NCBI GenBank assembly: GCA_016841725.1 | Contig: JAENYP010000005.1 | Location: 148,368-212,367, forward strand | Direction of reading: 5' to 3' | Origin: Thermincola carboxydiphila | GTDB lineage: Bacteria; Bacillota; Thermincolia; Thermincolales; UBA2595 | DNA length: 64,000 nucleotides | In this document: positions 49,362-64,000 of the stretch, one piece after another | Layout of the letters: each line of letters starts with the position of its first letter | Position numbering within the stretch: position 1 is the stretch's first letter | Position numbers and translations under genes: made by a program | The notes under the pieces: generated by a model | Seen by the model: the letters and a program-made list of their open reading frames with translations, nothing else | The model's database searches: none | Told to the model about the DNA's origin: nothing

Positions 49362-49444
49362 GCCGAAGTGGCGGAATTGGCAGACGCACACGATTCAAAA
49401 TCGTGCGGGAAACCATGAGGGTTCGAGTCCCTCCTTCGGCACCA
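49362..49444 (+). tRNA. tRNA-Leu (anticodon CAA), 3' CCA encoded
   Basis: GCCGAAG acceptor pairs with CTTCGGC; anticodon arm CACGA-TTCAAAA-TCGTG; T arm GAGGGTTCGAGTCCCTC. Confidence 0.95.
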
Positions 49445-49462
49445 TAAAACCCTTAGAGCATC

Positions 49463-49509
49463 AACGGTTTGTGCGGTATTGCCGAAGTAGCCCGCAGAAC
49501 CGTTTTTTT
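49463..49509 (+). terminator. Rho-independent terminator downstream of tRNA-Leu
   Basis: ACGGTTTGTGCGG...CCGCAGAACCGTTTTTTT. Confidence 0.7.
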
Positions 49510-49601
49510 GTGCAAATCGTGTGTGTCTGAGAAATACCCCTTACACCGCACGATTCCCTCCTTTGCTATGAGCCAGAAATCTGCGAAGGAGGTTTTGTTT
49601 T

Positions 49602-50546
49602 GTGGCAAAAGAGAAGGTTCTGCGTTTGCGGAAGGAAGTGACCGAGTCTTGGCAGGAGGTGCTGGAACAGTACCTATGGTTTAAACAGGCGGAGGGGCTG
49701 AGAGAGGCCACTGTCCGGGGCCACCGGGATGTTGTCCGGCTATTCCATACCCGCTACCCTGAGGCCTGGGAGAACCCCAAAAAGGCCGTCCTGGCGTTCA
49801 TGGCAGAGGACATAAAGGCCTCGACTTACAACATCAGGCTCTCCTATCTGAAGGCATTCTTTGACTGGTGTGTGGCTGAAGGGATTCACACCGACAACCC
49901 GATGACCAGATTAAAAAAACGGAAGGCTGAGGGCCGGGTGGTCAATCTAACCCTCGATGACCTGAAGGCATTGATTGAACTGCCAGACACCAAGACATTT
50001 GCCGGGCTGAGGGATTATGCAGTCATCTTGCTGACCCTGGATACGGGCATCAGACCCAAGGAGGCATTCTCACTGCTGGTTGATGACTTCAATTTCCGCT
50101 CATCCGAAGTATATGTCCGTAGTGAGGTGGCTAAGACAAAAGTGTCCAGGAGCCTGCCATTTTCCCCTGTAACGGCCAAGGTGGTCAGGGAATTGATACA
50201 GACCAGGCATCCAGGTTGGAATAGCAGTGTCCCTGTCTTCTGTTCCACAGAGGGGACAACCTTGAACCGCCATACCTGGGGTGACCGTCTGGAGATGTAC
50301 TGTAAGAGGTTGGGGATTAATATACGGCCCTATGACCTCCGTCACGCATTTGCCCTCCAGTTCCTCCGTAATGGTGGTCATGCCTTGGCACTGCAACGGA
50401 CTCTGGGCCATACAGACCTGAGCATGACAAAAAGATATGTTGCCCTGACCCAGCAGGACATAAAGGAGCAACATGCACTGGCATCACCGTTGAATGTATT
50501 GCTGCCTCAAAGGAATAGGGTCAGGAATGTAAAGCAGGGGCCATAA
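49602..50546 (+). CDS. int: Tyrosine-type site-specific integrase
   Basis: SAM-like N-domain; catalytic LDTGIRPKEA, LRHAFALQFLRNG, LQRTLGHTDLSMTKRYVAL. Confidence 0.9.
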   Translation: MAKEKVLRLRKEVTESWQEVLEQYLWFKQAEGLREATVRGHRDVVRLFHTRYPEAWENPKKAVLAFMAEDIKASTYNIRLSYLKAFFDWCVAEGIHTDNPMTRLKKRKAEGRVVNLTLDDLKALIELPDTKTFAGLRDYAVILLTLDTGIRPKEAFSLLVDDFNFRSSEVYVRSEVAKTKVSRSLPFSPVTAKVVRELIQTRHPGWNSSVPVFCSTEGTTLNRHTWGDRLEMYCKRLGINIRPYDLRHAFALQFLRNGGHALALQRTLGHTDLSMTKRYVALTQQDIKEQHALASPLNVLLPQRNRVRNVKQGP

Positions 50547-50811
50547 AAGGCCCCCTTCTCTTTTTCCTTTATACTTGTCCTATAAAGCCACCGCTCCGCC
50601 ATTATCAAGCAATAGTCAGTAATTCTCGCTTGCAGTGGTTTTAAAAGTAAATCTCAGTAGCGCACCTTTGCTAAAAATGTTCAAGCATTAATCCCTCATG
50701 ACTACTCATAAACACTAAAACATCTTGACTTGCTAATTGCGATGTCACCATATTATTCGGGTGAACAATAGCACACAAGGTACGGTAAAAAAAGAGCACA
50801 TACAAGTGCTC

Positions 50812-51084
50812 TCATTCGCGCCTATCATTGGGAACAACCTCATAAATACTAGTGGATAGTGCCTTGGCCAGTTTAAGTAACGTGATATAGGAAGGATTTC
50901 TTTGCCCAAGTTCAAGCTGACTTACGTATGTTCTATGTAAGTCTGCCTTAAAGCTTAGAGCTTCCTGAGAATAGCCTTTCTGCTCTCTTAAGCTCCTTAT
51001 GTGTCTGCCGAGTTTTTTAAGCTCTTCAAGGTATATATCTTCCACCAGCAACACCGTTCCCTTAGCGTAGGGTTTATTTTCCAT
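50812..51084 (-). CDS. XRE-family HTH repressor
   Basis: LGRHIRSLREQKGYSQEALSFKADLHRTYVSQLELGQRNPSYITLLKLAKAL; start moved to MENKPYAKG. Confidence 0.8.
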   Translation of the reverse strand: MENKPYAKGTVLLVEDIYLEELKKLGRHIRSLREQKGYSQEALSFKADLHRTYVSQLELGQRNPSYITLLKLAKALSTSIYEVVPNDRRE

Positions 51085-51117
51085 AAAGATTATATTATAA
51101 TAAACCCGAGTGGTCTT

Positions 51118-51131
51118 CAGACGATAGTCTG
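51118..51131. promoter_or_regulatory. Candidate operator palindrome CAGACGATAGTCTG
   Basis: CAGAC/GTCTG between divergent XRE repressor and excisionase-like gene, near a TATAAT-like minus-strand sequence. Confidence 0.4.
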
Positions 51132-51167
51132 CAAGCAACTACACTATATTTAAGGAGAGTGGTACTT

Positions 51168-51461
51168 ATGGATGCCCACACAGTTACCATTAGCCCTTCT
51201 AGGCGGCAGTTGCACAAAGAGATAAGCAGACTGCAGCGAGCAAATGACCTCCTCGAAGAAAACTACCAACTGAGACATGAACTCGACTCTCTCAAGGCAG
51301 AATTAGAGCGGTGTAATTTTCCTTGGGTGCTTAAAGTCAAACACGTCAAGGAGATAATGAACATTAGCAAAGAGAAAGCCTATGAGCTTGTCACAGAACC
51401 GGGATTCCCTGTTCTGTGGGTAGGTAGGGAGGCACAAATTCCAAGGCAGTCATTCTTCTAA
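51168..51461 (+). CDS. Excisionase-like HTH protein with N-terminal coiled coil
   Basis: VKHVKEIMNISKEKAYELVTEPGFPVLWVGREAQIPRQSFF. Confidence 0.55.
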   Translation: MDAHTVTISPSRRQLHKEISRLQRANDLLEENYQLRHELDSLKAELERCNFPWVLKVKHVKEIMNISKEKAYELVTEPGFPVLWVGREAQIPRQSFF

Positions 51462-51529
51462 TGGCTGCATACCTGTGGAGGAAGGTTTAAATTTAACGAC
51501 AATCTTATTGACTGACAGGAGGATACATA

Positions 51530-52213
51530 ATGAAGCCTATTGACCTTGTTGAAGTCAGGAACGAATGCCAAGGCCGAAAGCTAAACGAGATAGTACAGTA
51601 TCATATAAACAGAGCGAATCTAACAAAGTTAGAGCTTTGTTTCGAAGACACAAAGGACCGCCTTTCCCTAACAGGCCAAGATATAGCTAAAAAAATGACC
51701 CAGTTGTATAGTATGTTAGCTGCTACCAGCGATTTATGGCATGATGACTGTTCCACTATCTTTGACCATGTAACCGATAAAGCTAGAGAAATGTTTGACT
51801 CTATGGGGGAAGAGCCTGATGATGAAGACATTTACAACGTTTGGATGGCTACAGTACTTCATTTGACCATTTTAGCTTACATGTACGGAAATGTTAGAAA
51901 AGTGGCCGGAATTAAGAAACACATAAAACTACCCCTTACAAAGTTCATGGCGGGCATAGCAATCGGCCTCCTTGACGAATCGTGGCTCATGACCCTGGGC
52001 TCCATTTTAGGTTGGGGGATAGTATTTTGCGCCTATGTCTCTATCCTTGAGCGTGACAGGTTACGGAACTTTGTTGCAGATTCTATAGAAACTGGCAGGC
52101 GTGTATGGGGCCTGCCACCTGTTATGGGCTTCTATGTTATCGAATTCTGGGCGGCTGTTATTGGCGTAATACCTATTGTAGCCGTTACCCGTATAATCAG
52201 GGCAATCTTCTGA
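51530..52213 (+). CDS. Hypothetical protein with hydrophobic C-terminal half
   Basis: Intact 227-aa ORF with SD; hydrophobic segments near the C-terminus; no family recognised. Confidence 0.6.
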   Translation: MKPIDLVEVRNECQGRKLNEIVQYHINRANLTKLELCFEDTKDRLSLTGQDIAKKMTQLYSMLAATSDLWHDDCSTIFDHVTDKAREMFDSMGEEPDDEDIYNVWMATVLHLTILAYMYGNVRKVAGIKKHIKLPLTKFMAGIAIGLLDESWLMTLGSILGWGIVFCAYVSILERDRLRNFVADSIETGRRVWGLPPVMGFYVIEFWAAVIGVIPIVAVTRIIRAIF

Positions 52214-52218
52214 TTATA

Positions 52219-52815
52219 TCAGGCGAGCTTCCGTAACTTTAGCGTTTCCTGAACTGCCTTATACACCTGTTCCTCAACTACCTTACAGTTGAGGAATATT
52301 TTTTGGTAGGTTTGCCAGTGCATCCCCTTGGGCTTACAGGGGAAGCTGACCCCCACGATAAGTTCGCCGCCTAATTTCCGCTTTATCCTATGTATTCTGG
52401 ACAGCAACCTAGATATTTTATTCTGGCGTTGGCTATGGTAAACTAATCTATGGCAGTGTCTGCACCGGAAAAGGCCATTTTTCAAGTACAGTTTTCCTGC
52501 CCGTGTACCACAACCGGGGCAGATAAACCATGGTCGGCTTCCATAAGTGCAGGTACTGTGGGACAATAAAACTGAGTCATTCACCTCTCTGGTGATACTA
52601 CCCACGATTACAGTGTATTTCAAGTCTAATCTACCTGTGCAAGAGCAGATAAGGATACTGGCATCCTCCTCTGGAATGCTATACCAATGCCAACTGTAGC
52701 ATAACCCAGGTTGAAGAAGAGACTGACGATTAAGCTCGTTAATGTCAATGCTTAGGCATTCCTCAGTTAGAGTCTTTGTGGACAACCTCCACCTGCCTGA
52801 ACCGTAACCACCCAT
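52219..52815 (-). CDS. Zinc-ribbon hypothetical protein common in mobile elements
   Basis: GGYGSGRW N-terminus; CPGCGTRAGKLYLKNGLFRCRHCHRLVYHSQRQ. Confidence 0.6.
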   Translation of the reverse strand: MGGYGSGRWRLSTKTLTEECLSIDINELNRQSLLQPGLCYSWHWYSIPEEDASILICSCTGRLDLKYTVIVGSITREVNDSVLLSHSTCTYGSRPWFICPGCGTRAGKLYLKNGLFRCRHCHRLVYHSQRQNKISRLLSRIHRIKRKLGGELIVGVSFPCKPKGMHWQTYQKIFLNCKVVEEQVYKAVQETLKLRKLA

Positions 52816-53169
52816 AATACCACCTCCTGTAGTTTTATCGAAATCGTCTGGAAATTGGGCCTAATCACACTGCTATATCAGCCTAGCTAGAATGCCAAGG
52901 ATGGTTCCGTTTTTCCCTTTTCCCGTCCCAGTTTTCAAATAGCCCTGAACCCTTGATACACTTGGCTTGGAGGAAAATATGTCCCGGTTTCGGGGATACT
53001 CCACATATAGCTCAAAGTATATTACCTATGACTATTGCCAAAGACTTTACTCCCTATAGGTAAACATCATGAAAACCGGAACACATCTCCTGCAAGCCTT
53101 GCCCCGCAAGGGTTCGGGCGTACCCAGTTTTTTTGAAGATAAGCCAAAACCGGGTCACCCTAAGTAATA

Positions 53170-55302
53170 TTACGGTCTTAACCCAATCCCTGACCACAAT
53201 CGTGGCCCGGAGCGTTCTTTTATTTCATGGACCTTCGGCTGCAATTCCTGGACTCTTCTGTAAAATTTGTTCCTCCCGAGAGAAGTATAGCCCTCATCAT
53301 CACACCAATCCCCATATTCATCATAGAGCCGGGCCTTGCCGCAAACCGCATAATCTTCAACCACGCACTTGTCTTCAACGAAGGCAAGTACCGAGTCCGA
53401 TTCCCTTCTATACTGGGCTAAAGCTTCTTGGCTTGACTGGTTCTGAGAAAAATTACCCTTCTGGAATAGTTGCTTTAACCCCGCCAGGGCAAGGTTCAAA
53501 AGGCCGGAAAGTTCCTCAGGGGTAACAAGCTTGTCAATCAATCCGGCATCTGCGTTTTTGCCATGCTCAAACCTGTTGTTGAACGGAATCACCGTAATTC
53601 GCCGATAAAAGGCTTGAGACACATCATTAACTTGCGGCAATTGGTTCGCCGAAAAAATCAGCCGTGCAAATGGCCTGAATTCAAAGGGGTCTTGCCCCTT
53701 GCGCTCGGCATTTACATAGTCTCCAGAGACAATCATTTTGAAGGTTGAAATATCCTGAATAGCCTTGGCGGGAAGGTCGGCACAAGTGTTTATTAACTTC
53801 CCCTGCAACCCCGCCAGTTTAAACCTATGTTCGCATAAGTCCTGAAATGATATATTGGCTACGTTCTGGCGACCAATGAAGGAGTTTAAAAGGTCAATAA
53901 GTTTCGATTTCCCATTGCCACCCGTTCCGGTCAAAAGAAACGCCCTCTCAAATTTAGCGGTCGGGAGCAAACAGTAGCCGAAAATTTCGAACACCAAGTC
54001 TATACAGTCATGTGGCAGTACCTCCTCTATGAAGTCCAAAACTTTATCTGCCTTGGCAGTGGGGTCGTAGACAACGGGGACTTGGATTGTGCTAAGCCTT
54101 TCCGGCGTGTGAGGTCTAAGTTCCCCGCTTTGCCAATCAAGAAGGCCATTGCGTAGGTTGATTACCCTATCATCAGGGTTAACCAAGGAAGTGTCAGCCA
54201 CACGCATCTTTTCAATGTAATAAGCTACCTCCTCTACCCTTGCCCGACGGTATTCTGTATCAAGTAAGGATATACTGGACCGCTCTACCACCTGTCTACC
54301 CTGTGGCAAATAAACACCATTTTTATACACCCAAAGGGTATGTCCATCAGAAAATAAACTTTCCTCTGTTAATACATCTTCGGCAAGGAGTTTCGGCACA
54401 AATGTACCCCCATCGAAGTACTTCTCTCTTACCGTAGGAGAAAACTTTCCTGAAATAACCTGACCCGTACCGCCTTCAATGACGGTCAACTCCGCACTAG
54501 CGGGGTTCCAATAGGGAGTTGCCTCAACAAGTGCCAATAATTCATCTTTAGAGTGACCTATAGCTACCCAATCAGATACATCCCCCTTTTCGGTTAACCC
54601 AGGAAGGGGTAACACCTTTACTGTCTGAGCTATGGGATGCAAGGCAAGGGCTACCTCTTGGGCATGTTCGTGCCCTGTTTTATCATTATCAGGGAGAATA
54701 ACCACGTTGGCACCTTCAAAACATCTGTTGTAGCCGACATCCTTAGGCCAACCACCAGCTCCACCTTCCTTAGTAGTAGCCTTTAAGCCCAGGGCGCTCA
54801 ATGTGTTGGCATCTTTTTCCCCTTCTACAACAAAGACAACTTCGGAGTCTTTGTCCATTTTGAGAATCTCTGGGAGATTATAGGGGACGCGTCTAACCCC
54901 CTGCATCTTGTTTATCCATCCACCCTTTCCATCGGGGCGTTGCTGGTAAAACCCCTTGGGGAAAGTACGACATACTCTGTATAGAACCTCACCGTCTTCG
55001 CTTAAATACTGATAACTCGCTACCACCTCCCTTCGTTTAGCAAGACTTGAATTGCTTTTCTTGAAGGGTGATTCCACCATGAGCCTTTTAGCAAAGTCAT
55101 TTATGCCACCACTGCCACAACCAGCATGGCATATCCAAGTTCCCTTCTCAGCATTGACGCTAAAAGAGGGATTGCGGTCATCATGGAATGGGCATCGGGT
55201 TTGCCCCTGGTTACCTCTCCATTTAATGGCTGAAGAAAGCACTGTGGAAAACCAGTCTTTAATCTCTGCAGGGTTTATGGTATGATAAGCTTGTAGTCCC
55301 AT
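53170..55302 (-). CDS. Phage/plasmid primase-helicase (P4/D5 family; CHC2 zinc finger, Toprim, SF3 helicase)
   Basis: CPFHDDRNPSFSVNAEKGTWICHAGC; VFVVEGEKDANTL; LLTGTGGNGKSKLIDLL; start ATG 55302 after SD AGGAGG. Confidence 0.9.
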   Translation of the reverse strand: MGLQAYHTINPAEIKDWFSTVLSSAIKWRGNQGQTRCPFHDDRNPSFSVNAEKGTWICHAGCGSGGINDFAKRLMVESPFKKSNSSLAKRREVVASYQYLSEDGEVLYRVCRTFPKGFYQQRPDGKGGWINKMQGVRRVPYNLPEILKMDKDSEVVFVVEGEKDANTLSALGLKATTKEGGAGGWPKDVGYNRCFEGANVVILPDNDKTGHEHAQEVALALHPIAQTVKVLPLPGLTEKGDVSDWVAIGHSKDELLALVEATPYWNPASAELTVIEGGTGQVISGKFSPTVREKYFDGGTFVPKLLAEDVLTEESLFSDGHTLWVYKNGVYLPQGRQVVERSSISLLDTEYRRARVEEVAYYIEKMRVADTSLVNPDDRVINLRNGLLDWQSGELRPHTPERLSTIQVPVVYDPTAKADKVLDFIEEVLPHDCIDLVFEIFGYCLLPTAKFERAFLLTGTGGNGKSKLIDLLNSFIGRQNVANISFQDLCEHRFKLAGLQGKLINTCADLPAKAIQDISTFKMIVSGDYVNAERKGQDPFEFRPFARLIFSANQLPQVNDVSQAFYRRITVIPFNNRFEHGKNADAGLIDKLVTPEELSGLLNLALAGLKQLFQKGNFSQNQSSQEALAQYRRESDSVLAFVEDKCVVEDYAVCGKARLYDEYGDWCDDEGYTSLGRNKFYRRVQELQPKVHEIKERSGPRLWSGIGLRP

Positions 55303-55373
55303 ATGTTTGCCTCCTAGCTTAATTGAATGGGGGTATTTCGAGTTCCTCGGTTCCAGAGCCGAGGGATTTTTGT

Positions 55374-55589
55374 TTAAGCCACTGTCAGCTCCCTGGGCCA
55401 TCCGTTTTCCCTGAATAATTCGTTTTCGGACATCCCCAGCAGTTGAGACAATTGACGGCGTATTTTAGGCCAGGGTTTGCGGTAGAGTCCCTCAATTTGT
55501 GAAACAGAGCTGCTTGTGATACCCAATTGCCGAGCAATCTCTGCCTGGCTAAGTCCGGCCTGCCTCCTTTTGAATTCCAGGATTGTCAT
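55374..55589 (-). CDS. XRE-family HTH protein
   Basis: MTILEFKRRQAGLSQAEIARQLGITSSSVSQIEG. Confidence 0.75.
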   Translation of the reverse strand: MTILEFKRRQAGLSQAEIARQLGITSSSVSQIEGLYRKPWPKIRRQLSQLLGMSENELFRENGWPRELTVA

Positions 55590-55618
55590 TAATGTCACCC
55601 CTTTTCTGATATTGGCAT

Positions 55619-55636
55619 TGGCAATTGCTGTTGCCA
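55619..55636. promoter_or_regulatory. Candidate operator TGGCAATTGCTGTTGCCA
   Basis: TGGCAA/TTGCCA inverted repeat between divergent XRE gene and 55671 ORF. Confidence 0.35.
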
Positions 55637-55670
55637 CAAAACATATTGCACGAAAGGAACTTGGGAGCAA

Positions 55671-56900
55671 ATGTTAGACAAGTTAACATCCGGTCTCGAA
55701 CTGGTAAAAAACATGACCCCAGAACACAAAAAAAAGACTGCCCATGGATGGGAAGCCATTACTTTGGCACCTGACCGGTATCTTTTGCGTGGTCATAGTC
55801 TCTCTATTGCGTTTTATAAGCAGTCGATTCCCGCCATGATTCTGCCATGTGTCTTGGATGCTATAAACAACGGTACTCTTGGCAAACCCGAGGATTGGCC
55901 TTATGAATACCATGCACAGGTGAGCATGTGGACTGCGTGCTTATACTTCATACTGTTAAATAAAGGGCTTGACCAGGAAGAAGCAGAAGCCTTCATTTCT
56001 GAGCTTGCTAATATTCCATGGGAAGAGTTGTCACAATGGGCAAGAGATATACTGACAGAAGTTCCTCAGTCCAAGAGTGGGATGTTCAATTTCCTCATTA
56101 AGGCCACCGGAGATGAGTTACAGGTAAGGAAGCTACTTGATGAGTCTCAGCTAGACCGGAAGAAATTACGGCAAGTCTTCCAACGAAGCGGAGGTACTGG
56201 AAGTATTATATGTCTCTCCTGCATGACCAGGGATGACACCGTTTTGGCTCAAATGTGCCTGTTGGCATGGCGACAAGGTAAGAAAGACGAGGAACTACTT
56301 CGCTTTGTCCACCGATATATAAGAAAGGTAACAAGTGATGACGTTGCTATGACTGTTGTATCGCACCTTATTGAAAAATGGGAGACTCCTCTTTACCCCG
56401 GAAGTTTTAACAACTTCATACGGAAATGTATCCACGGAGTCAGCAAAAACGAACAGGGTAGTGATATTGCCAGCAGTGAGGCCGTTGAAGCAAAAGAGGC
56501 CCTGAACTATAGCCCTAAAAAGAGGAAGCAAGCCAGATTTTATTGTGACAGGTACACAGTGGCCCAAGCCTCTGGTATAATTGGATGTTCTACCAGATGG
56601 TTGTATAACCAAATAAACGCAGGTAACCTTCCCAATGCAGAAGTGAATATTGAACGGCACATTACCGAACAGGAAACAATTGAAAAGCGTTCTTACAGCA
56701 TTAATGATGATTGCCTTAGAGATGCCATAAATCTGTACCGCAAGGCAACCGACTCCACTCGGGCGGAATTGGTGAAGTATGTTGCCCGCAAAAGGGCTAT
56801 AGGGATTAGGGGCGCACAGAAGTGGATAAAAACAAGAGAAGACCAAGGGAAGTCACTGCAGGAAATAGCGATAGAAGCAGGTCTTGACCCTTGTTCGTAA
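55671..56900 (+). CDS. Hypothetical protein, 409 aa, with HTH-like segment
   Basis: Intact ORF; RYTVAQASGIIGCSTRWLYNQINAGNLPNAEV resembles an HTH; divergent from XRE gene. Confidence 0.6.
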   Translation: MLDKLTSGLELVKNMTPEHKKKTAHGWEAITLAPDRYLLRGHSLSIAFYKQSIPAMILPCVLDAINNGTLGKPEDWPYEYHAQVSMWTACLYFILLNKGLDQEEAEAFISELANIPWEELSQWARDILTEVPQSKSGMFNFLIKATGDELQVRKLLDESQLDRKKLRQVFQRSGGTGSIICLSCMTRDDTVLAQMCLLAWRQGKKDEELLRFVHRYIRKVTSDDVAMTVVSHLIEKWETPLYPGSFNNFIRKCIHGVSKNEQGSDIASSEAVEAKEALNYSPKKRKQARFYCDRYTVAQASGIIGCSTRWLYNQINAGNLPNAEVNIERHITEQETIEKRSYSINDDCLRDAINLYRKATDSTRAELVKYVARKRAIGIRGAQKWIKTREDQGKSLQEIAIEAGLDPCS

Positions 56901-57386
56901 ATCATCCAATGTGAAGACGGCTAGGGAACCCATATACCCGCTAGGTGAACTCAAAACTACCATACCCCCTACCCCCTAAACCTACAACTGTCGAGATAAC
57001 TCCGAATACTTGGGTCCTATACCTCGACTAAGCACCTCACATTAGTTACGGCTGATGTTCAACCTAGACCCCAGCAACCAGCTGTAGTTATTAAGAAGCC
57101 CAAAAGGCCGTTAGGACACTGTTGCCCCACAAACCAACCTTGACCCTTCATTGGCAGTCCTACAGCCTGTGATGGCTGATTGACAGCTTTATAGGGACAT
57201 GGCCAGTAGGTCAGCTTTGTCATTGAAGGTTAGGACATTAGCACACTGGGGTTGACAAGTATTTCCTCGGCAGGTAGAATAGGACATGAAACACACACGA
57301 TTTCGCCACCGGAATAAACTGGAAATACTGAATCGTGTGTGCCTGGCGATATAGCAAAAGTGGGGAATCCAGTAACGGTGCGGGTT

Positions 57387-57466
57387 GTGGCGGAATTGGC
57401 AGACGCACACGATTCAAAATCGTGCGGGAAACCATGAGGGTTCGAGTCCCTCCTTCGGCACCATAA
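57387..57466 (+). pseudogene. tRNA-Leu remnant (attachment-site copy) lacking the 5' acceptor strand
   Basis: Identical to tRNA positions 7 onward; the upstream CGGGTT cannot pair with CTTCGGC. Confidence 0.9.
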
Positions 57467-57620
57467 AACCCTTGATATATAAGGCTTCAGGAGATTTCTC
57501 CCCTGAAGCCTTTTTATTTGTATTTGGACTAACATGTAAGATCCCTTAACAGATTATGCTCATCTTTTTTCGTCCAGGCAGGCTGTCATTCTGAAGCTCA
57601 CCGGGTTTTCCTTGGATCAT

Positions 57621-58406: not shown

Positions 58407-58803
58407 GGTTTTGGCCTCCAAGCTTCCTGATACTTTTGGAAAATTAATCAATACGGGCAAATACAGAGTTGACCCGGTTTTTGAGGGGTTTTATGAAATT
58501 AGAAAAGACTCGCATTAGTGGGTCTCCTAATATGGATAATGGGAAGTTTATTTGTGGCATATTATTGATTAGTAAAAAGATTAGAATAGGAATTGGAAAA
58601 TGAAAGCACTAATTAGATGAGTATCAAGTGGATAGTACTATAGCTCCTAACCTCGAATGCCATTCGCAACTCGCTCATTATACCCAGTCATAATTAGTAA
58701 AACCGAGGCCCAAAAACAAAAACCGGACCTCAACCAGTACCTTGATGTGAAAAAAACATTAAATTATAGTGAATTCTAGATCGGTTCCAGCGTTGGCTCA
58801 GCA

Positions 58804-61800
58804 TTAATTTTCGTTAATCCAAATTTGCTCCTGATCAGTCAGTTTCGCACCTAGTCCCGGTGCAATTGTTTTAAAAATGCCTTGGGCCATTCTATGTGGT
58901 GGAAGTTGTAATGCTTGCTCCAATTCTAATTCCACCATGGCCGGAGCTCGGAACCGAAATCTTGCGGCTTTAAACTTCTCACTCCAAAAGGTTGATACAA
59001 AAGGAATTACAATTAATCGATATAATGATTTTAATGAACTCAGCTGGTTATACAACAACGGGAAAACTGATATTTGAAGCTTTATAGCGTGTTCCGGAAT
59101 CGCCAATAAAGAAGCTCCTAAATAACAAAGACTCTTTAGTCCCAACTCCAGGTCGTTATTATATTCGTTACCTTTATCAAGAATCTCCTTCCAACTAACT
59201 TCATGTACAAATACCACTTCCACAACGTTAGCAGCTCCAGTCCAAAGACTCGAACTGACTGCTTTTATACTTACTTGATGAAGTAGATCAATTACGGTTT
59301 TCGCGAGAGTCCTACATCTCTCAGGATCTACATATTTCAAAGTAGCTAACCTTAGAAAGATTGGAATTACGCTGAAAAATACAGCATTTGATTCTACATT
59401 AATCCAATTATCATTTGGTTTTGAGCCAAGTATGCTGTTAATATCAAGCTTTTCGCCAGGCTGGTTACCAGATTTCGTTTCCAATTTTAATGCTTGAAAA
59501 GTAGCTCCAATATCTAATGAAAGACTAACTACTTCTAGAAACCGGTTTTCAACAATTAAATGAGGTAATGCCTCTAAACCTGTAGAAATTAAAAGTGCTA
59601 TTTCACTGTCACATCCATGGGACATTTCCAACGCACGTAACCCCCACCTGGGTACTTGTTCGTATTCCCCAATAGCCTCCGCGTATTTTGATATGTGAGT
59701 AGCTACCATCCAGTCTTTGTTTTCATTATAAAAAGTTGCGGCTTCAGCTGAAAAATTCAAGAATATTCCTCTTTGTGGAGCAGCGTACTCTTCACCGTTA
59801 CCAATAGTTTGCGGGGGCCTACCCTGGCAAGCCAAAGAAGTAAGGTATCCCGAGACGTGACCAAAAACAACGAATAAACTTTTCCAGTCAGTAGAGTCTT
59901 CCTTACAATTTATTAACCGTTCTGTCGCTTCAACCCAAGGCTGAAAAGCTTTGCGGATACCATCTTTTAACCATAGACTTAAAGCATGCTCCCCAAGTGC
60001 TTTAACAAGTGTTGTTTCTGGTACAACTTCATTACTTCTAGCTAATTCCACAGCTAGTTCAGTATAGACAGTCGACTGAATACAATCTTCCGGACCTACT
60101 AATTTACTTAAGTACAACAACACCTGTATACGTTCTAATACGTATGAATCGGTATCACATTTTAAAGCATCTAAAAGCCACTTTGTAGCGTCCTTTGGTT
60201 TATTTGCATAGGCCAACTGTAGTCCAACAGCCTCTTTTATTACAAACTGAACTGTTTGATCCGCCGAAGCTAATGTTAGAGACTCCGTGGCCAATTCAAG
60301 TGCACGGTCTATATCTTTGATATACTCGCCATATACAATTATTTGGGCTCGAATTGAGCAGGCCCAAAGTAATTCTAGCCCTATCGCCTCAGCTCTAACC
60401 GATAATTCATTAGTTACCTCAGCTATACTTCTCCAGTTCTGTTTGGGTACCGGTTTTCGAGCTTCTTTCAACCAGAGGGTATTGCTCACCATCATACAGC
60501 CTTCTACAGCAATGAGACTATTAAAAGCTTCTTCTCGCTGTTCTGGAACTAGTTGTTCTATTGTGGACATCCAATTGCGAAGGTGATTTTGTGTATTTAT
60601 CCCGACTAAGCTAATCCAAATTGTGGATGACAAAGGTATTGGAAATTCCTCGTTTAAAACTTTTTCTGCCCCTAACTTAAGGGCCTTTAATAGGTATCCG
60701 TTGGCTCTGTCAGGATCAATTCCGGCTCGAAGCAATCCACATAAAATAGCCGCAGATAAAACTCCAAACGATTCTTCATTGGTTGCTTCTTCCATAAGAC
60801 GATCGAGTTCATTCAACAAGGCTTCTGTATTTTTGCCGAGTTTCTCACATGCAGCAATCTGAGTAGCCCTTAAAAACAGCTTTGTATCCAGTTCCATTCC
60901 ATCGGGTAAAGGGATACCATACCATAAATCAGTTAACCCATAATCTAGAACTTTTTTATCTTCACTTCTAATTGAATTAAAAGCTATAGCTAATATCTGC
61001 CCTGCTTTATTGAATTGCTTGGCTGAGCAAAAATGGCTTACTGTTTTCATGATATCAACTGGGCCTAACTGACCCTTACCAATTATTGACTCTCCCAGTT
61101 CATTATGTACGTTTATTTGAGTATCAGCTGTCAAATTACCACTACCAAGATGATTCAATAATGGTGAGATAATATAAGTATCTGGACTATCTTGCTGAAC
61201 CCATAGTCCCAGCACTGAACTAATCTTCTCAAAAGGATGCTGAATAGATGGGTTAACATTGCTTATTATCGAAACATCGCTATCCCTAAACGTGCTTCCT
61301 ACTAAATTTAATCTATATAATAAGTCGCGGCTGTCAGGTTCATGAACAGTTGCCATTAACCAGGCTTGAGTTTGCGAAAATAATTCATCTGCATGTTCCC
61401 CACTTATAAGTCCCCTAAATGTAGCTTCAGAAAATACCCATTCAGTAGAAGCAAAATATCGTATAACAGCGGCAATTAATGAGGGATGCCCTCTCGTCAC
61501 TGACCTTATAAACTCAAGTCTTGCCTCAGTGAGGAAGTTTTGCGGGGAATTGTTAACTTTAAATAATTCTGAAATCTCTTCGTCGGAAAACCTTGGAGTA
61601 TCGATTTTTGCGAGTTGGTCTCCCAAAATAGTTTTGAATTGTACATTAAAAGGATGGGAGCTGGTAGATAAAATTTTAATATTATTTATTGAACACGCTT
61701 TGGCAAGCATGGCTAATTTTTCGTTAAGTGAATCGCCATCTAGTATCCGGGGTAAATCATCCAACACCAGAATGTCTCCTGAATCCAATTTTGAACATAT

Positions 61801-63078
61801 ATAATTAGCCCAACTTTGATATGAAGCAAACGGTGCTGATCCAACCAGAACAGTTAAAGCTGAATCAATACTAGCACTTGTTTGTAAAGAATTTAACCCG
61901 CGTAACCTTATCCATGCTTTACAAACACCCAAACTTTCACTCATTAAAAAAGCCAATAAAGTCTTTCCACATGCAATGTCTCCATGTATTCCAATCCATG
62001 TTTTACTGCGATTAGCCGTTATTAAGTCGCAAACTGTCTGTTGCCTCTTTATTAAATTATTAGGGACGAGAGGCAAGTCTATAAATGGAGTTTGGATAGA
62101 GTGACTAATAGTAGCATCCATACCGACTTGGCTTGCCAGTTGACAGACTTTATTATCCAGTTGCGCTACAACCTGCTGTTGACTACTAAGAGTTTGCTCA
62201 ATATTTATTACTCTATCTTCCAGTTTAGTTAATAACACTTTTAATTTAACTCTTATGGATTCCTCTATTTGATCTATTGAAGTTGCTAGATTTATTTTTA
62301 GGTCATCAGAAGATAAACGCTTTATCCCTGAATTAGATAACAATCTAAAAACGCTGATAAATAATTTATAATATTGTAACTCAGCAACATCTACTGAGGC
62401 TGCATAACCTTCATCGATTAGTTTTTGCTGAGTTTGCCTTTCAAGGTTTACAGGTGATGGATTTAATGTACTCCACTCTACCTTCGAAATAAAATCGAAA
62501 AGGTCATCTTCAGTTGCTGTAGTAATAAAATTACGCCAAACCTCCCAGGAATCCTTATTGAATTTAGCTGGCCTGAGTGCCTCCTCGAGAATGCTCTTCA
62601 ATCCTCTAAGTAGTTCTGGTCTATCGTCTTCACCAATGGTCCCATTCCTTAGTTGATCCCACGCTGTAAGAGCGGAAATTTTTTTTAAAGATAATGGGGC
62701 ATTCCTTTCCTTGCCGACCTTTGAGTTTGTTACATATCTAAAAGTTAAATTTAAACCAGGATTGTTATGCAGGTGTTCATAATATGAAGCCAGGGCATTG
62801 ATTGCCTCAGATGATCGTAAGGTTAAATTCGTATCACGGTGTTTCACTTGTTCAAGTATTCTTTGTTGCTCTTCTTGTGAACCGCTAAGTGCTAAATGAA
62901 CTAAATCTATATCTTCTCCTCTTTCAAGTTCCAATACTTCTCCGGGGTTAAGTTGTAACCAGCGGTCAATAATAAGATCAACTTGATAAACATATCCTCT
63001 AATTGTCGCCCAGGCATCCCGCTCTCGAGGTGGATTAAATTGAGGTGTTGTCATTTGTTTCTCCCCCAGGTTACTCAA
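58804..63078 (-). CDS. Cap4/DUF4297-like nuclease + STAND NTPase + helical-repeat protein (candidate Avs-like antiviral protein)
   Basis: N-terminal RGYVYQ..LELERGEDIDLV..ILEQVKH (PD-(D/E)xK-like); Walker A GIHGDIACGKT (~aa 363-373); Walker B DILVLDDLP; GxP-type TRGHPSLIAA; long helical C-terminus. Confidence 0.75.
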   Translation of the reverse strand: MSNLGEKQMTTPQFNPPRERDAWATIRGYVYQVDLIIDRWLQLNPGEVLELERGEDIDLVHLALSGSQEEQQRILEQVKHRDTNLTLRSSEAINALASYYEHLHNNPGLNLTFRYVTNSKVGKERNAPLSLKKISALTAWDQLRNGTIGEDDRPELLRGLKSILEEALRPAKFNKDSWEVWRNFITTATEDDLFDFISKVEWSTLNPSPVNLERQTQQKLIDEGYAASVDVAELQYYKLFISVFRLLSNSGIKRLSSDDLKINLATSIDQIEESIRVKLKVLLTKLEDRVINIEQTLSSQQQVVAQLDNKVCQLASQVGMDATISHSIQTPFIDLPLVPNNLIKRQQTVCDLITANRSKTWIGIHGDIACGKTLLAFLMSESLGVCKAWIRLRGLNSLQTSASIDSALTVLVGSAPFASYQSWANYICSKLDSGDILVLDDLPRILDGDSLNEKLAMLAKACSINNIKILSTSSHPFNVQFKTILGDQLAKIDTPRFSDEEISELFKVNNSPQNFLTEARLEFIRSVTRGHPSLIAAVIRYFASTEWVFSEATFRGLISGEHADELFSQTQAWLMATVHEPDSRDLLYRLNLVGSTFRDSDVSIISNVNPSIQHPFEKISSVLGLWVQQDSPDTYIISPLLNHLGSGNLTADTQINVHNELGESIIGKGQLGPVDIMKTVSHFCSAKQFNKAGQILAIAFNSIRSEDKKVLDYGLTDLWYGIPLPDGMELDTKLFLRATQIAACEKLGKNTEALLNELDRLMEEATNEESFGVLSAAILCGLLRAGIDPDRANGYLLKALKLGAEKVLNEEFPIPLSSTIWISLVGINTQNHLRNWMSTIEQLVPEQREEAFNSLIAVEGCMMVSNTLWLKEARKPVPKQNWRSIAEVTNELSVRAEAIGLELLWACSIRAQIIVYGEYIKDIDRALELATESLTLASADQTVQFVIKEAVGLQLAYANKPKDATKWLLDALKCDTDSYVLERIQVLLYLSKLVGPEDCIQSTVYTELAVELARSNEVVPETTLVKALGEHALSLWLKDGIRKAFQPWVEATERLINCKEDSTDWKSLFVVFGHVSGYLTSLACQGRPPQTIGNGEEYAAPQRGIFLNFSAEAATFYNENKDWMVATHISKYAEAIGEYEQVPRWGLRALEMSHGCDSEIALLISTGLEALPHLIVENRFLEVVSLSLDIGATFQALKLETKSGNQPGEKLDINSILGSKPNDNWINVESNAVFFSVIPIFLRLATLKYVDPERCRTLAKTVIDLLHQVSIKAVSSSLWTGAANVVEVVFVHEVSWKEILDKGNEYNNDLELGLKSLCYLGASLLAIPEHAIKLQISVFPLLYNQLSSLKSLYRLIVIPFVSTFWSEKFKAARFRFRAPAMVELELEQALQLPPHRMAQGIFKTIAPGLGAKLTDQEQIWINEN

Positions 63079-63258
63079 CAGTCTGATTCTCTCTTAGAAT
63101 CTTAAATACAAACCTTAACATAGACATTAATTATTTCTTACAATCATAATTGTTAAATTATAACACACTTCTTAACTTCTTCAAAGATAGTGGAAATTCA
63201 CACTTCCCCTAATAGACATCTTGGCCGTTTATGGATAATGTGCAGTTCACAACGTTTG

Positions 63259-63981
63259 CTAATCAGTAACATCTAGGAGAAAACCATATCTGCCATCGTT
63301 TTCTTCTTTTGTAAAGTGAATAATATTAGTATTCTTATAATCTATATCAGGGATTTCGTTTTCAATCACAATTGTTTGTATACCATCCTGATTATTAACT
63401 ATATTTTCAACAAGAGCATTACGTATAGTTTCTGACGGCTTTTTGGTTTCCTTTTCCTTGAGGGAGAGAATAGGAGAATCTAACACCAAGAAATCAGGAG
63501 AGTACTTTGCTTTACTATGCATATACCTTGATAATACGATTGCCACCACAGAATTGAAATAAGCATTATACCCCTTACCATTGGAACTTTTCTTTTTCCC
63601 ATTTATTACGATATCCATATCTGCCTTGTCAAATATCACTGAAAGCAAGTTGTCATATTTGCAATTTTCAAGAAAAGATTTAATGTCATTACTAAACTTA
63701 GAAATAAAATCATAATTAAGGTGCTCTTTTACTTTAAACTTCAGCTTGCTTTCTTCGTCAATCTCATTTTCAATCATATCAGCTGTCTTTTGATCAGCGA
63801 TTCGTTTGAGAATAGCTATTTCATTCTGGCGTTCAATTGCCGCTTTATAGGCAGTCAGTTTTTCCTTCAATGAAGAAAGTTGTGGCTTTAATTCTTTTTC
63901 AACAAGATATTCAGAAGATTTCTTTTTTGTCATCAGTATTTCAATTGTGAATGATAATATAAAAGTGTACCACTTCAGCAC
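63259..63981 (-). CDS. C-terminal part of ABC/SMC-type ATPase (frame open to window edge)
   Basis: Coiled coil, then SSNGKGYNAYFNSVVAIVLSRYM (signature-like) and PDFLVLDSPILSL (Walker B-like); no Walker A in window; no stop between 63981 and 64000 in frame. Confidence 0.5.
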   Translation of the reverse strand: MLKWYTFILSFTIEILMTKKKSSEYLVEKELKPQLSSLKEKLTAYKAAIERQNEIAILKRIADQKTADMIENEIDEESKLKFKVKEHLNYDFISKFSNDIKSFLENCKYDNLLSVIFDKADMDIVINGKKKSSNGKGYNAYFNSVVAIVLSRYMHSKAKYSPDFLVLDSPILSLKEKETKKPSETIRNALVENIVNNQDGIQTIVIENEIPDIDYKNTNIIHFTKEENDGRYGFLLDVTD

Positions 63982-64000
63982 CTTTTGACAGTGAATTAGT

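What the first reader, a model, noticed from the sequence alone, without database searches (positions are those of the whole stretch)
58804..63078. Candidate Avs-like antiviral protein: Cap4-like nuclease fused to STAND NTPase and helical-repeat sensor
Directly seen: one 1424-aa ORF whose N-terminus has RGYVYQ..ERGEDID..EQVKH, a central P-loop NTPase (GIHGDIACGKT, DILVLDDLP, TRGHPSL GxP-like motif) and about 800 aa of helical repeats. Established knowledge: antiviral STAND NTPases (Avs/AVAST) have N-terminal effector nuclease, STAND ATPase and C-terminal TPR-like sensor, and Cap4/DUF4297 nucleases are used as effectors. Inference: this is a defence protein beyond a tRNA integration hotspot, possibly in a divergent Avs clade, because I do not recognise the sensor region.
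Basis: partly seen in the sequence, partly recalled or inferred. Interest (0 to 1): 0.8.

Follow-up and report, generated by a model that had tools for sequence, protein, structure and literature searches.

The report
Single-gene Avs-like bacterial immune receptor
This is a large bacterial protein that joins a DNA-cutting part, an ATP-driven switch and a long repeat-built sensor, and it most likely detects phage infection and then destroys DNA; its build is already known from antiviral Avs proteins, but it belongs to a rare, apparently undescribed branch.

Summary
Window 58804-63078 (-) is one intact gene of 1424 codons, probably 1416 from the ATG at 63054. It encodes a Cap4/DUF4297-type nuclease domain, a STAND-type NTPase and about 770 residues of helical, TPR-like sensor. 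The whole length is conserved in Chlorogloeopsis (39% identity) and Deinococcus (28%). Priestia keeps switch and sensor but has an unrelated N-terminus, and Aulosira has lost the nuclease. More distant proteobacterial plasmid relatives share the architecture, with the sensor diverging fastest; five sit beside Gabija, Qat, CBASS or Lamassu genes. No Avs model of PADLOC or NCBIfam matches. It is a tempting partner, but the close relatives lack LmuB, LmuB's own relatives end complete LmuA-LmuC-LmuB operons, and this copy is broken at a repeated element. So it is a defence-island neighbour. Best reading: a stand-alone, Avs-like abortive-infection receptor, a new member of a known kind. The trigger is unknown. 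Structure prediction was poor because only two sequences could be aligned.

The parts
58804..63054 (-). Cap4-STAND-TPR receptor gene (ATG start at 63054, 1416 aa; alternative TTG start at 63078, 1424 aa)
   Evidence: ORF; 39% identity over full length to Chlorogloeopsis protein L013:9992-14215
62209..63024 (-). N-terminal Cap4/DUF4297-type nuclease domain (aa 19-290)
   Evidence: PADLOC LmuA 3e-15 over aa 19-290 and DUF4297 1.7e-6; NCBIfam DUF4297_antiphage 1.6e-5, far below its cut-off; PDB DUF4297 8xav 8e-6 by family profile
62842..62925 (-). Putative PD-(D/E)xK-type active site E52..D56..E76-Q77-V78-K79
   Evidence: Conserved in relatives; aligns with the same segment of DUF4297 8xav
61129..62079 (-). 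STAND-type AAA+ NTPase with winged-helix-like end (aa 334-650)
   Evidence: Family profile hits PH0952 STAND-TPR sensor, Apaf-1 and AAA+ ATPases; relatives hit AAA_16, NB-ARC and nSTAND Pfam models weakly
61960..61983 (-). Walker A GDIACGKT (aa 366-373)
   Evidence: Kept in all relatives that have the STAND domain
61756..61770 (-). Walker B LVLDD (aa 437-441)
   Evidence: Conserved
61477..61491 (-). GxP-like motif GHPSL (aa 530-534)
   Evidence: GHPxL conserved in most relatives
58807..61128 (-). C-terminal helical, TPR-like sensor (aa 651-1424)
   Evidence: Collinear with proteobacterial relatives over 728 columns, hhalign 98.4%, E 1e-14; TPR-like helices in model, pLDDT 70-89 in the best part
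63157..63184 (-). Promoter-like site TTGAAG-16-TATAAT with TG before -10, between LmuB remnant and the receptor gene
   Evidence: Consensus scan; total number of sites hardly above shuffles, so weak evidence
58722..58738 (-). Terminator-like hairpin plus T-run just after the stop codon
   Evidence: Consensus scan; not above chance in number
63259..63945 (-). C-terminal half of a Lamassu LmuB (Rad50/SMC-like) gene: remnant neighbour, not judged part of the system
   Evidence: PADLOC LmuB PDLC03867 2.8e-67, profile positions 371-605 of 605
63946..64000 (.). Repeated element end at the contig end: 55 bases identical to the first 55 bases of two other contigs

Best explanation
A stand-alone Avs-like antiphage receptor. 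In the resting state the TPR-like C-terminal sensor and the STAND NTPase hold the protein inactive. A phage component binds the sensor, ATP-bound STAND domains oligomerise, and the N-terminal Cap4-type nuclease domains are brought together and cut double-stranded DNA, stopping phage multiplication at the cost of the cell (abortive infection). Shown here: the three-part architecture, conserved motifs, exchange or loss of the effector in relatives, fastest divergence in the sensor, and defence-island context. Inferred from Avs and DUF4297 work: oligomerisation, DNA cleavage, cell death and a phage-protein trigger.
For: Nuclease domain: LmuA 3e-15, DUF4297 1.7e-6; family profile hits the PDB DUF4297 nuclease, an enzyme shown to degrade dsDNA and act by abortive infection (PMC11291478). 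NTPase: Walker A, Walker B and GHPxL motifs conserved; profile hits PH0952 STAND and Apaf-1. Modularity: Priestia keeps switch and sensor but has an unrelated 190-aa N-terminus; Aulosira lacks the nuclease. Sensor diverges fastest: window against proteobacterial relatives about 20-25% identity in nuclease and switch but 12-16% in the sensor. Neighbours of relatives: Lamassu, Qat, Gabija twice, CBASS. Low-GC, probably acquired segment, 0.33-0.42 against 0.45-0.48. Avs architecture and mechanism from PMC12931631.
Against: No direct functional evidence. No curated Avs model matches. Structure models are poor (pLDDT 43 and 54). No phage-encoded relative or trigger was found. The window protein's own single-sequence Pfam scan gives no STAND or nuclease family. 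Three relatives have R in place of the QxK lysine, so not every member need be an active nuclease.
Confidence: 0.77

Rival explanations
1. It is the LmuA effector of a variant Lamassu system: the Cap4-STAND-TPR protein is controlled by the LmuB encoded just upstream.
For: Best profile match of the N-terminus is LmuA; an LmuB C-terminal half lies 180-200 bp upstream on the same strand; an Agrobacterium relative has a Sir2-containing Lamassu-like operon directly downstream.
Against: The full-length relatives in Chlorogloeopsis and Deinococcus, and Priestia, have no LmuB nearby. LmuB relatives sit last in LmuA-LmuC-LmuB operons with their own LmuA and no STAND gene. The window LmuB lacks its N-terminal half, is broken at a repeated element, and no other half or other LmuA is in the assembly. 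In the Agrobacterium locus the gene order differs. Other relatives neighbour Gabija, Qat or CBASS instead.
Confidence: 0.06
2. A STAND protein with a non-defence role, such as a MalT-like regulator, with a nuclease-like domain kept as a DNA-binding module.
For: STAND-TPR proteins such as MalT are regulators (PMC10427625, title and abstract); three relatives have R instead of K in the QxK motif.
Against: The window, Chlorogloeopsis and Deinococcus keep the complete motif. No C-terminal DNA-binding domain was found. Relatives sit among defence systems on plasmids.
Confidence: 0.05
3. A nuclease answering to a nucleotide second messenger (CBASS Cap4-like) rather than to a phage protein.
For: The same nuclease family serves as a CBASS effector (PMC10586767); one relative lies near a CBASS cyclase.
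Against: No SAVED or other nucleotide-sensor match and no cyclase match among the neighbouring proteins scanned in the window; the CBASS in the relative's locus has its own annotated effector.
Confidence: 0.03
4. A recently acquired but decaying defence gene that no longer works.
For: The adjacent LmuB is a broken remnant; the Aulosira homologue has lost its nuclease.
Against: The frame is intact and all motifs are kept; a ribosome-binding site and a promoter-like site precede it.
Confidence: 0.09

Closest known systems
Avs/AVAST antiviral STAND NTPases (Avs1-Avs4, nuclease effectors)
   Same: N-terminal nuclease, central STAND NTPase, long C-terminal sensor in one polypeptide; found with other defence genes. 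Avs3 also carries a Cap4 domain (PMC11291478).
   Different: No match to curated Avs models at E<=1; recognition of terminase, portal or any other trigger is untested; the sensor has no named family.
DUF4297 nuclease of DUF4297-HerA
   Same: N-terminal nuclease domain family, with the E..D..QxK segment aligned.
   Different: No HerA among the neighbouring genes scanned; the switch is a fused STAND NTPase.
Lamassu LmuA (Cap4 type)
   Same: LmuA is the best-scoring PADLOC model for aa 19-290.
   Different: LmuA effectors work with LmuB and usually LmuC (PMC10586767); this protein has its own NTPase and sensor, and its relatives occur without LmuB.
PH0952 STAND-TPR sensor (PDB 6mfv) and Apaf-1
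   Same: STAND NTPase followed by a repeat domain; weak profile hits and a Foldseek hit to 6mfv.
   Different: Very distant; no nuclease domain is matched in them.

Membership tests
Avs/AVAST (general architecture) | N-terminal effector enzyme domain | tested here: met
   LmuA/DUF4297 nuclease profile matches
Avs/AVAST (general architecture) | Central STAND NTPase with Walker A, Walker B and downstream winged-helix region | tested here: met
   Conserved motifs across relatives and profile hits to STAND and AAA+ proteins; not confirmed by a confident structure
Avs/AVAST (general architecture) | Long C-terminal repeat sensor | tested here: met
   Weak TPR models in relatives; helical model with TPR Foldseek hits, low confidence
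Avs1-Avs5 (named types) | Sequence match to curated Avs models | tested here: not met
   No Avs model at E<=1 in PADLOC or NCBIfam. That these libraries hold Avs models is my own knowledge; no positive control was run
Avs1-Avs5 (named types) | Activation by a phage protein and oligomerisation | not testable with these tools
   Needs co-expression and phage assays
Lamassu | Intact LmuB (Rad50/SMC-like) partner | tested here: not met
   Only the C-terminal half is present; broken at a repeated element
Lamassu | LmuB co-encoded in relatives of the candidate LmuA | tested here: not met
   Absent in Chlorogloeopsis, Deinococcus, Priestia; one Agrobacterium locus has a complete operon with its own Sir2 effector
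DUF4297-HerA | HerA ATPase partner gene next to it | tested here: inconclusive
   None among the scanned window neighbours, but the contig ends within LmuB
CBASS Cap4 | Nucleotide-sensor domain and a cyclase gene | tested here: not met
   No SAVED match in the protein and no cyclase match in scanned neighbours

The most novel reading that the evidence does not exclude
The proteins of the window, Chlorogloeopsis, Deinococcus and Priestia form a separate type of antiviral STAND receptor, outside Avs1-Avs5, whose fast-diverging TPR-like sensor recognises a phage component not yet known as an Avs trigger, and whose effector can be exchanged (Cap4 for an unknown 190-aa module in Priestia).
Probability: 0.35. 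Interest if true: 0.6.

Novelty: new member of a known kind. Interest (0 to 1): 0.42.

Why it matters
Antiviral STAND proteins are relatives in design of animal and plant NLR immune receptors. A rare clade spread over cyanobacteria, Deinococcus, Priestia (Bacillota) and the window's host, with one switch-plus-sensor and exchangeable effectors, gives a compact set in which to look for a new phage trigger. The work also warns that the neighbouring LmuB and the LmuA-like N-terminus could lead an annotation pipeline to call this a Lamassu system.

Tried and rejected
Single-sequence Pfam and PDB scans of the window protein gave only chance hits. The first genome contigs and viral-contig scans with the single protein found nothing; the alignment found one relative, Chlorogloeopsis. 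Searches of 398 genomes of the window's phylum and 386 of the Chlorogloeopsis phylum gave only the known members plus short weak TPR or NTPase matches. The mad8 matches are short and cover only NTPase segments: rejected. AlphaFold2 with a two-sequence alignment gave poor models; the Foldseek lists (ORC, RuvB, Apaf-1, plant NLRs for the switch; LGN, Ski3, PH0952 for the sensor) agree with STAND plus TPR but carry little weight. The Lamassu reading was taken seriously because of LmuB and dropped after checking relatives of both genes. A direct profile comparison with known Avs proteins was not possible because no Avs sequence was in hand.

Full report
Observation. The ORF at 58804-63078 on the minus strand is real: 1424 aa from a TTG codon. 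Its stop-free frame of 1429 codons compares with a maximum of 193 in 200 base shuffles. An ATG at 63054 is preceded by GGGGGAG at a normal distance, so the product is probably 1416 aa. Residue numbers below follow the 1424-aa frame. The gene lies in a segment with G+C of 0.33-0.42, against 0.45-0.48 further left. It is about 1.3 kb beyond an 8-kb integrated element bounded by an exact 87-bp direct repeat that contains most of a tRNA-Leu (49368-49454 and 57387-57473). The gene is therefore outside that element.

Nuclease domain. Residues 19-290 match the PADLOC LmuA model (3.2e-15) and the DUF4297 model (1.7e-6), and NCBIfam DUF4297_antiphage below its cut-off. A profile of eight relatives hits the solved DUF4297 nuclease 8xav (8e-6), aligning the E..D..QxK segment. 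That enzyme degrades dsDNA, needs its PD-(D/E)xK motif and acts by abortive infection (PMC11291478). In the window the candidates are E52, D56, Q77 and K79. Three relatives (L009, L049, L012) have R instead of K.

Switch. Walker A (GDIACGKT), Walker B (LVLDD), GHPxL and the downstream winged-helix-like region are conserved across relatives. Relatives hit AAA_16, NB-ARC and nSTAND models weakly, and family profiles hit the PH0952 STAND-TPR protein and Apaf-1 among AAA+ ATPases.

Sensor. Residues 651-1424 match no named family in the window protein. Relatives show weak TPR models. The predicted model is all-helical, with pLDDT 70-89 in its best part and poor elsewhere; Foldseek returns TPR solenoids and the PH0952 STAND-TPR protein. 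These structure results are only supportive, because two-sequence alignments gave mean pLDDT 43 and 54.

Relatives. Full-length relatives are in Chlorogloeopsis fritschii (L013, 39%) and a Deinococcus plasmid (L007, 28%). A Priestia plasmid protein (L008) keeps switch and sensor (25%) but its first ~190 aa are unrelated and match nothing. Aulosira plasmid6 (L006) is nearly identical to the Chlorogloeopsis locus but a deletion has removed parB and the nuclease domain. The window, Chlorogloeopsis, Deinococcus and Priestia proteins group apart from nine proteobacterial plasmid proteins with 100/100 support on the switch. The proteobacterial proteins share the architecture; the sensors are collinear over 728 columns (hhalign 98.4%) but only 12-16% identical to the window, against about 20-25% for nuclease and switch. 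A fast-changing sensor is what recognition of varied phage components would produce (inference). No relative was found in phages or viral contigs. The family is rare: in samples of 398 and 386 genomes only the source genomes carried full-length copies.

Neighbourhoods. Among the plasmid relatives, L049 and L050 lie beside Gabija genes, L048 beside Qat, L051 beside a CBASS cyclase, and L009 directly upstream of a Lamassu-like operon. This supports a defence role. It is a small set of plasmids and two of the proteins (L009, L049) are close relatives of each other.

The LmuB next door. It matches LmuB at 2.8e-67 over profile positions 371-605. The contig ends here. Its last 55 bases are identical to the first 55 bases of two other contigs, as expected where an assembly stops at a repeated mobile element. 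No N-terminal half of LmuB and no second LmuA were found in the assembly. Four LmuB relatives that I examined end LmuA-LmuC-LmuB operons (one annotation splits and one fuses genes of the operon), and none has a STAND gene next to it. The close relatives of the STAND protein lack LmuB. I conclude that the LmuB is the broken tail of a separate Lamassu operon and a defence-island neighbour. I cannot exclude that an intact copy lies in an assembly gap.

Mechanism. By analogy with Avs proteins, whose nuclease effectors cut host and phage DNA after recognition of terminase, portal or another phage protein (PMC12931631), I infer: phage component binds the sensor, STAND domains oligomerise with ATP, Cap4 domains are activated, DNA is cut and the infected cell dies. 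Only the anatomy and context are shown here.

Classification. It has the build of an Avs protein; Avs3 also carries a Cap4 domain (PMC11291478). It cannot be filed under Avs1-Avs5: no curated model matches, although no positive control was run and the trigger is unknown. It is not a Lamassu LmuA by the partner criterion. I rate it a new member of a known kind, possibly a separate clade.

Noticed in passing
window 49368-57473: About 8-kb integrated element bounded by exact 87-bp direct repeats covering most of tRNA-Leu(caa), with a tyrosine integrase, XRE-type regulators and a D5-type primase-helicase and no capsid gene seen: looks like a phage satellite or small integrative element.
   Followed up: partly
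window 63259-64000: LmuB gene truncated to its C-terminal half at a repeated element that also begins contigs C6 and C32.
   Followed up: yes
L006:6473-6522 compared with L013:8526-9992: Two near-identical cyanobacterial plasmid loci differ by a deletion that removes parB and the nuclease domain of the receptor, leaving switch and sensor.
   Followed up: partly
L008:7431-8030: Priestia homologue carries an unrelated, unrecognised N-terminal module of about 190 aa in place of the Cap4 nuclease.
   Followed up: partly
L009, L012, L049 (receptor genes): The QxK motif reads QVR in these relatives, so the nuclease may be altered or inactive.
   Followed up: no
L009, L048, L049: Three Agrobacterium plasmids carry the receptor near the same integrase and RHE_PE00001 gene but with different defence cargo (Lamassu-like, Qat, Gabija): an apparent defence hotspot.
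   Followed up: no
L052:7956-9800: A Burkholderia protein of 614 aa has the same N-terminal nuclease-like domain but no STAND motifs.
   Followed up: no
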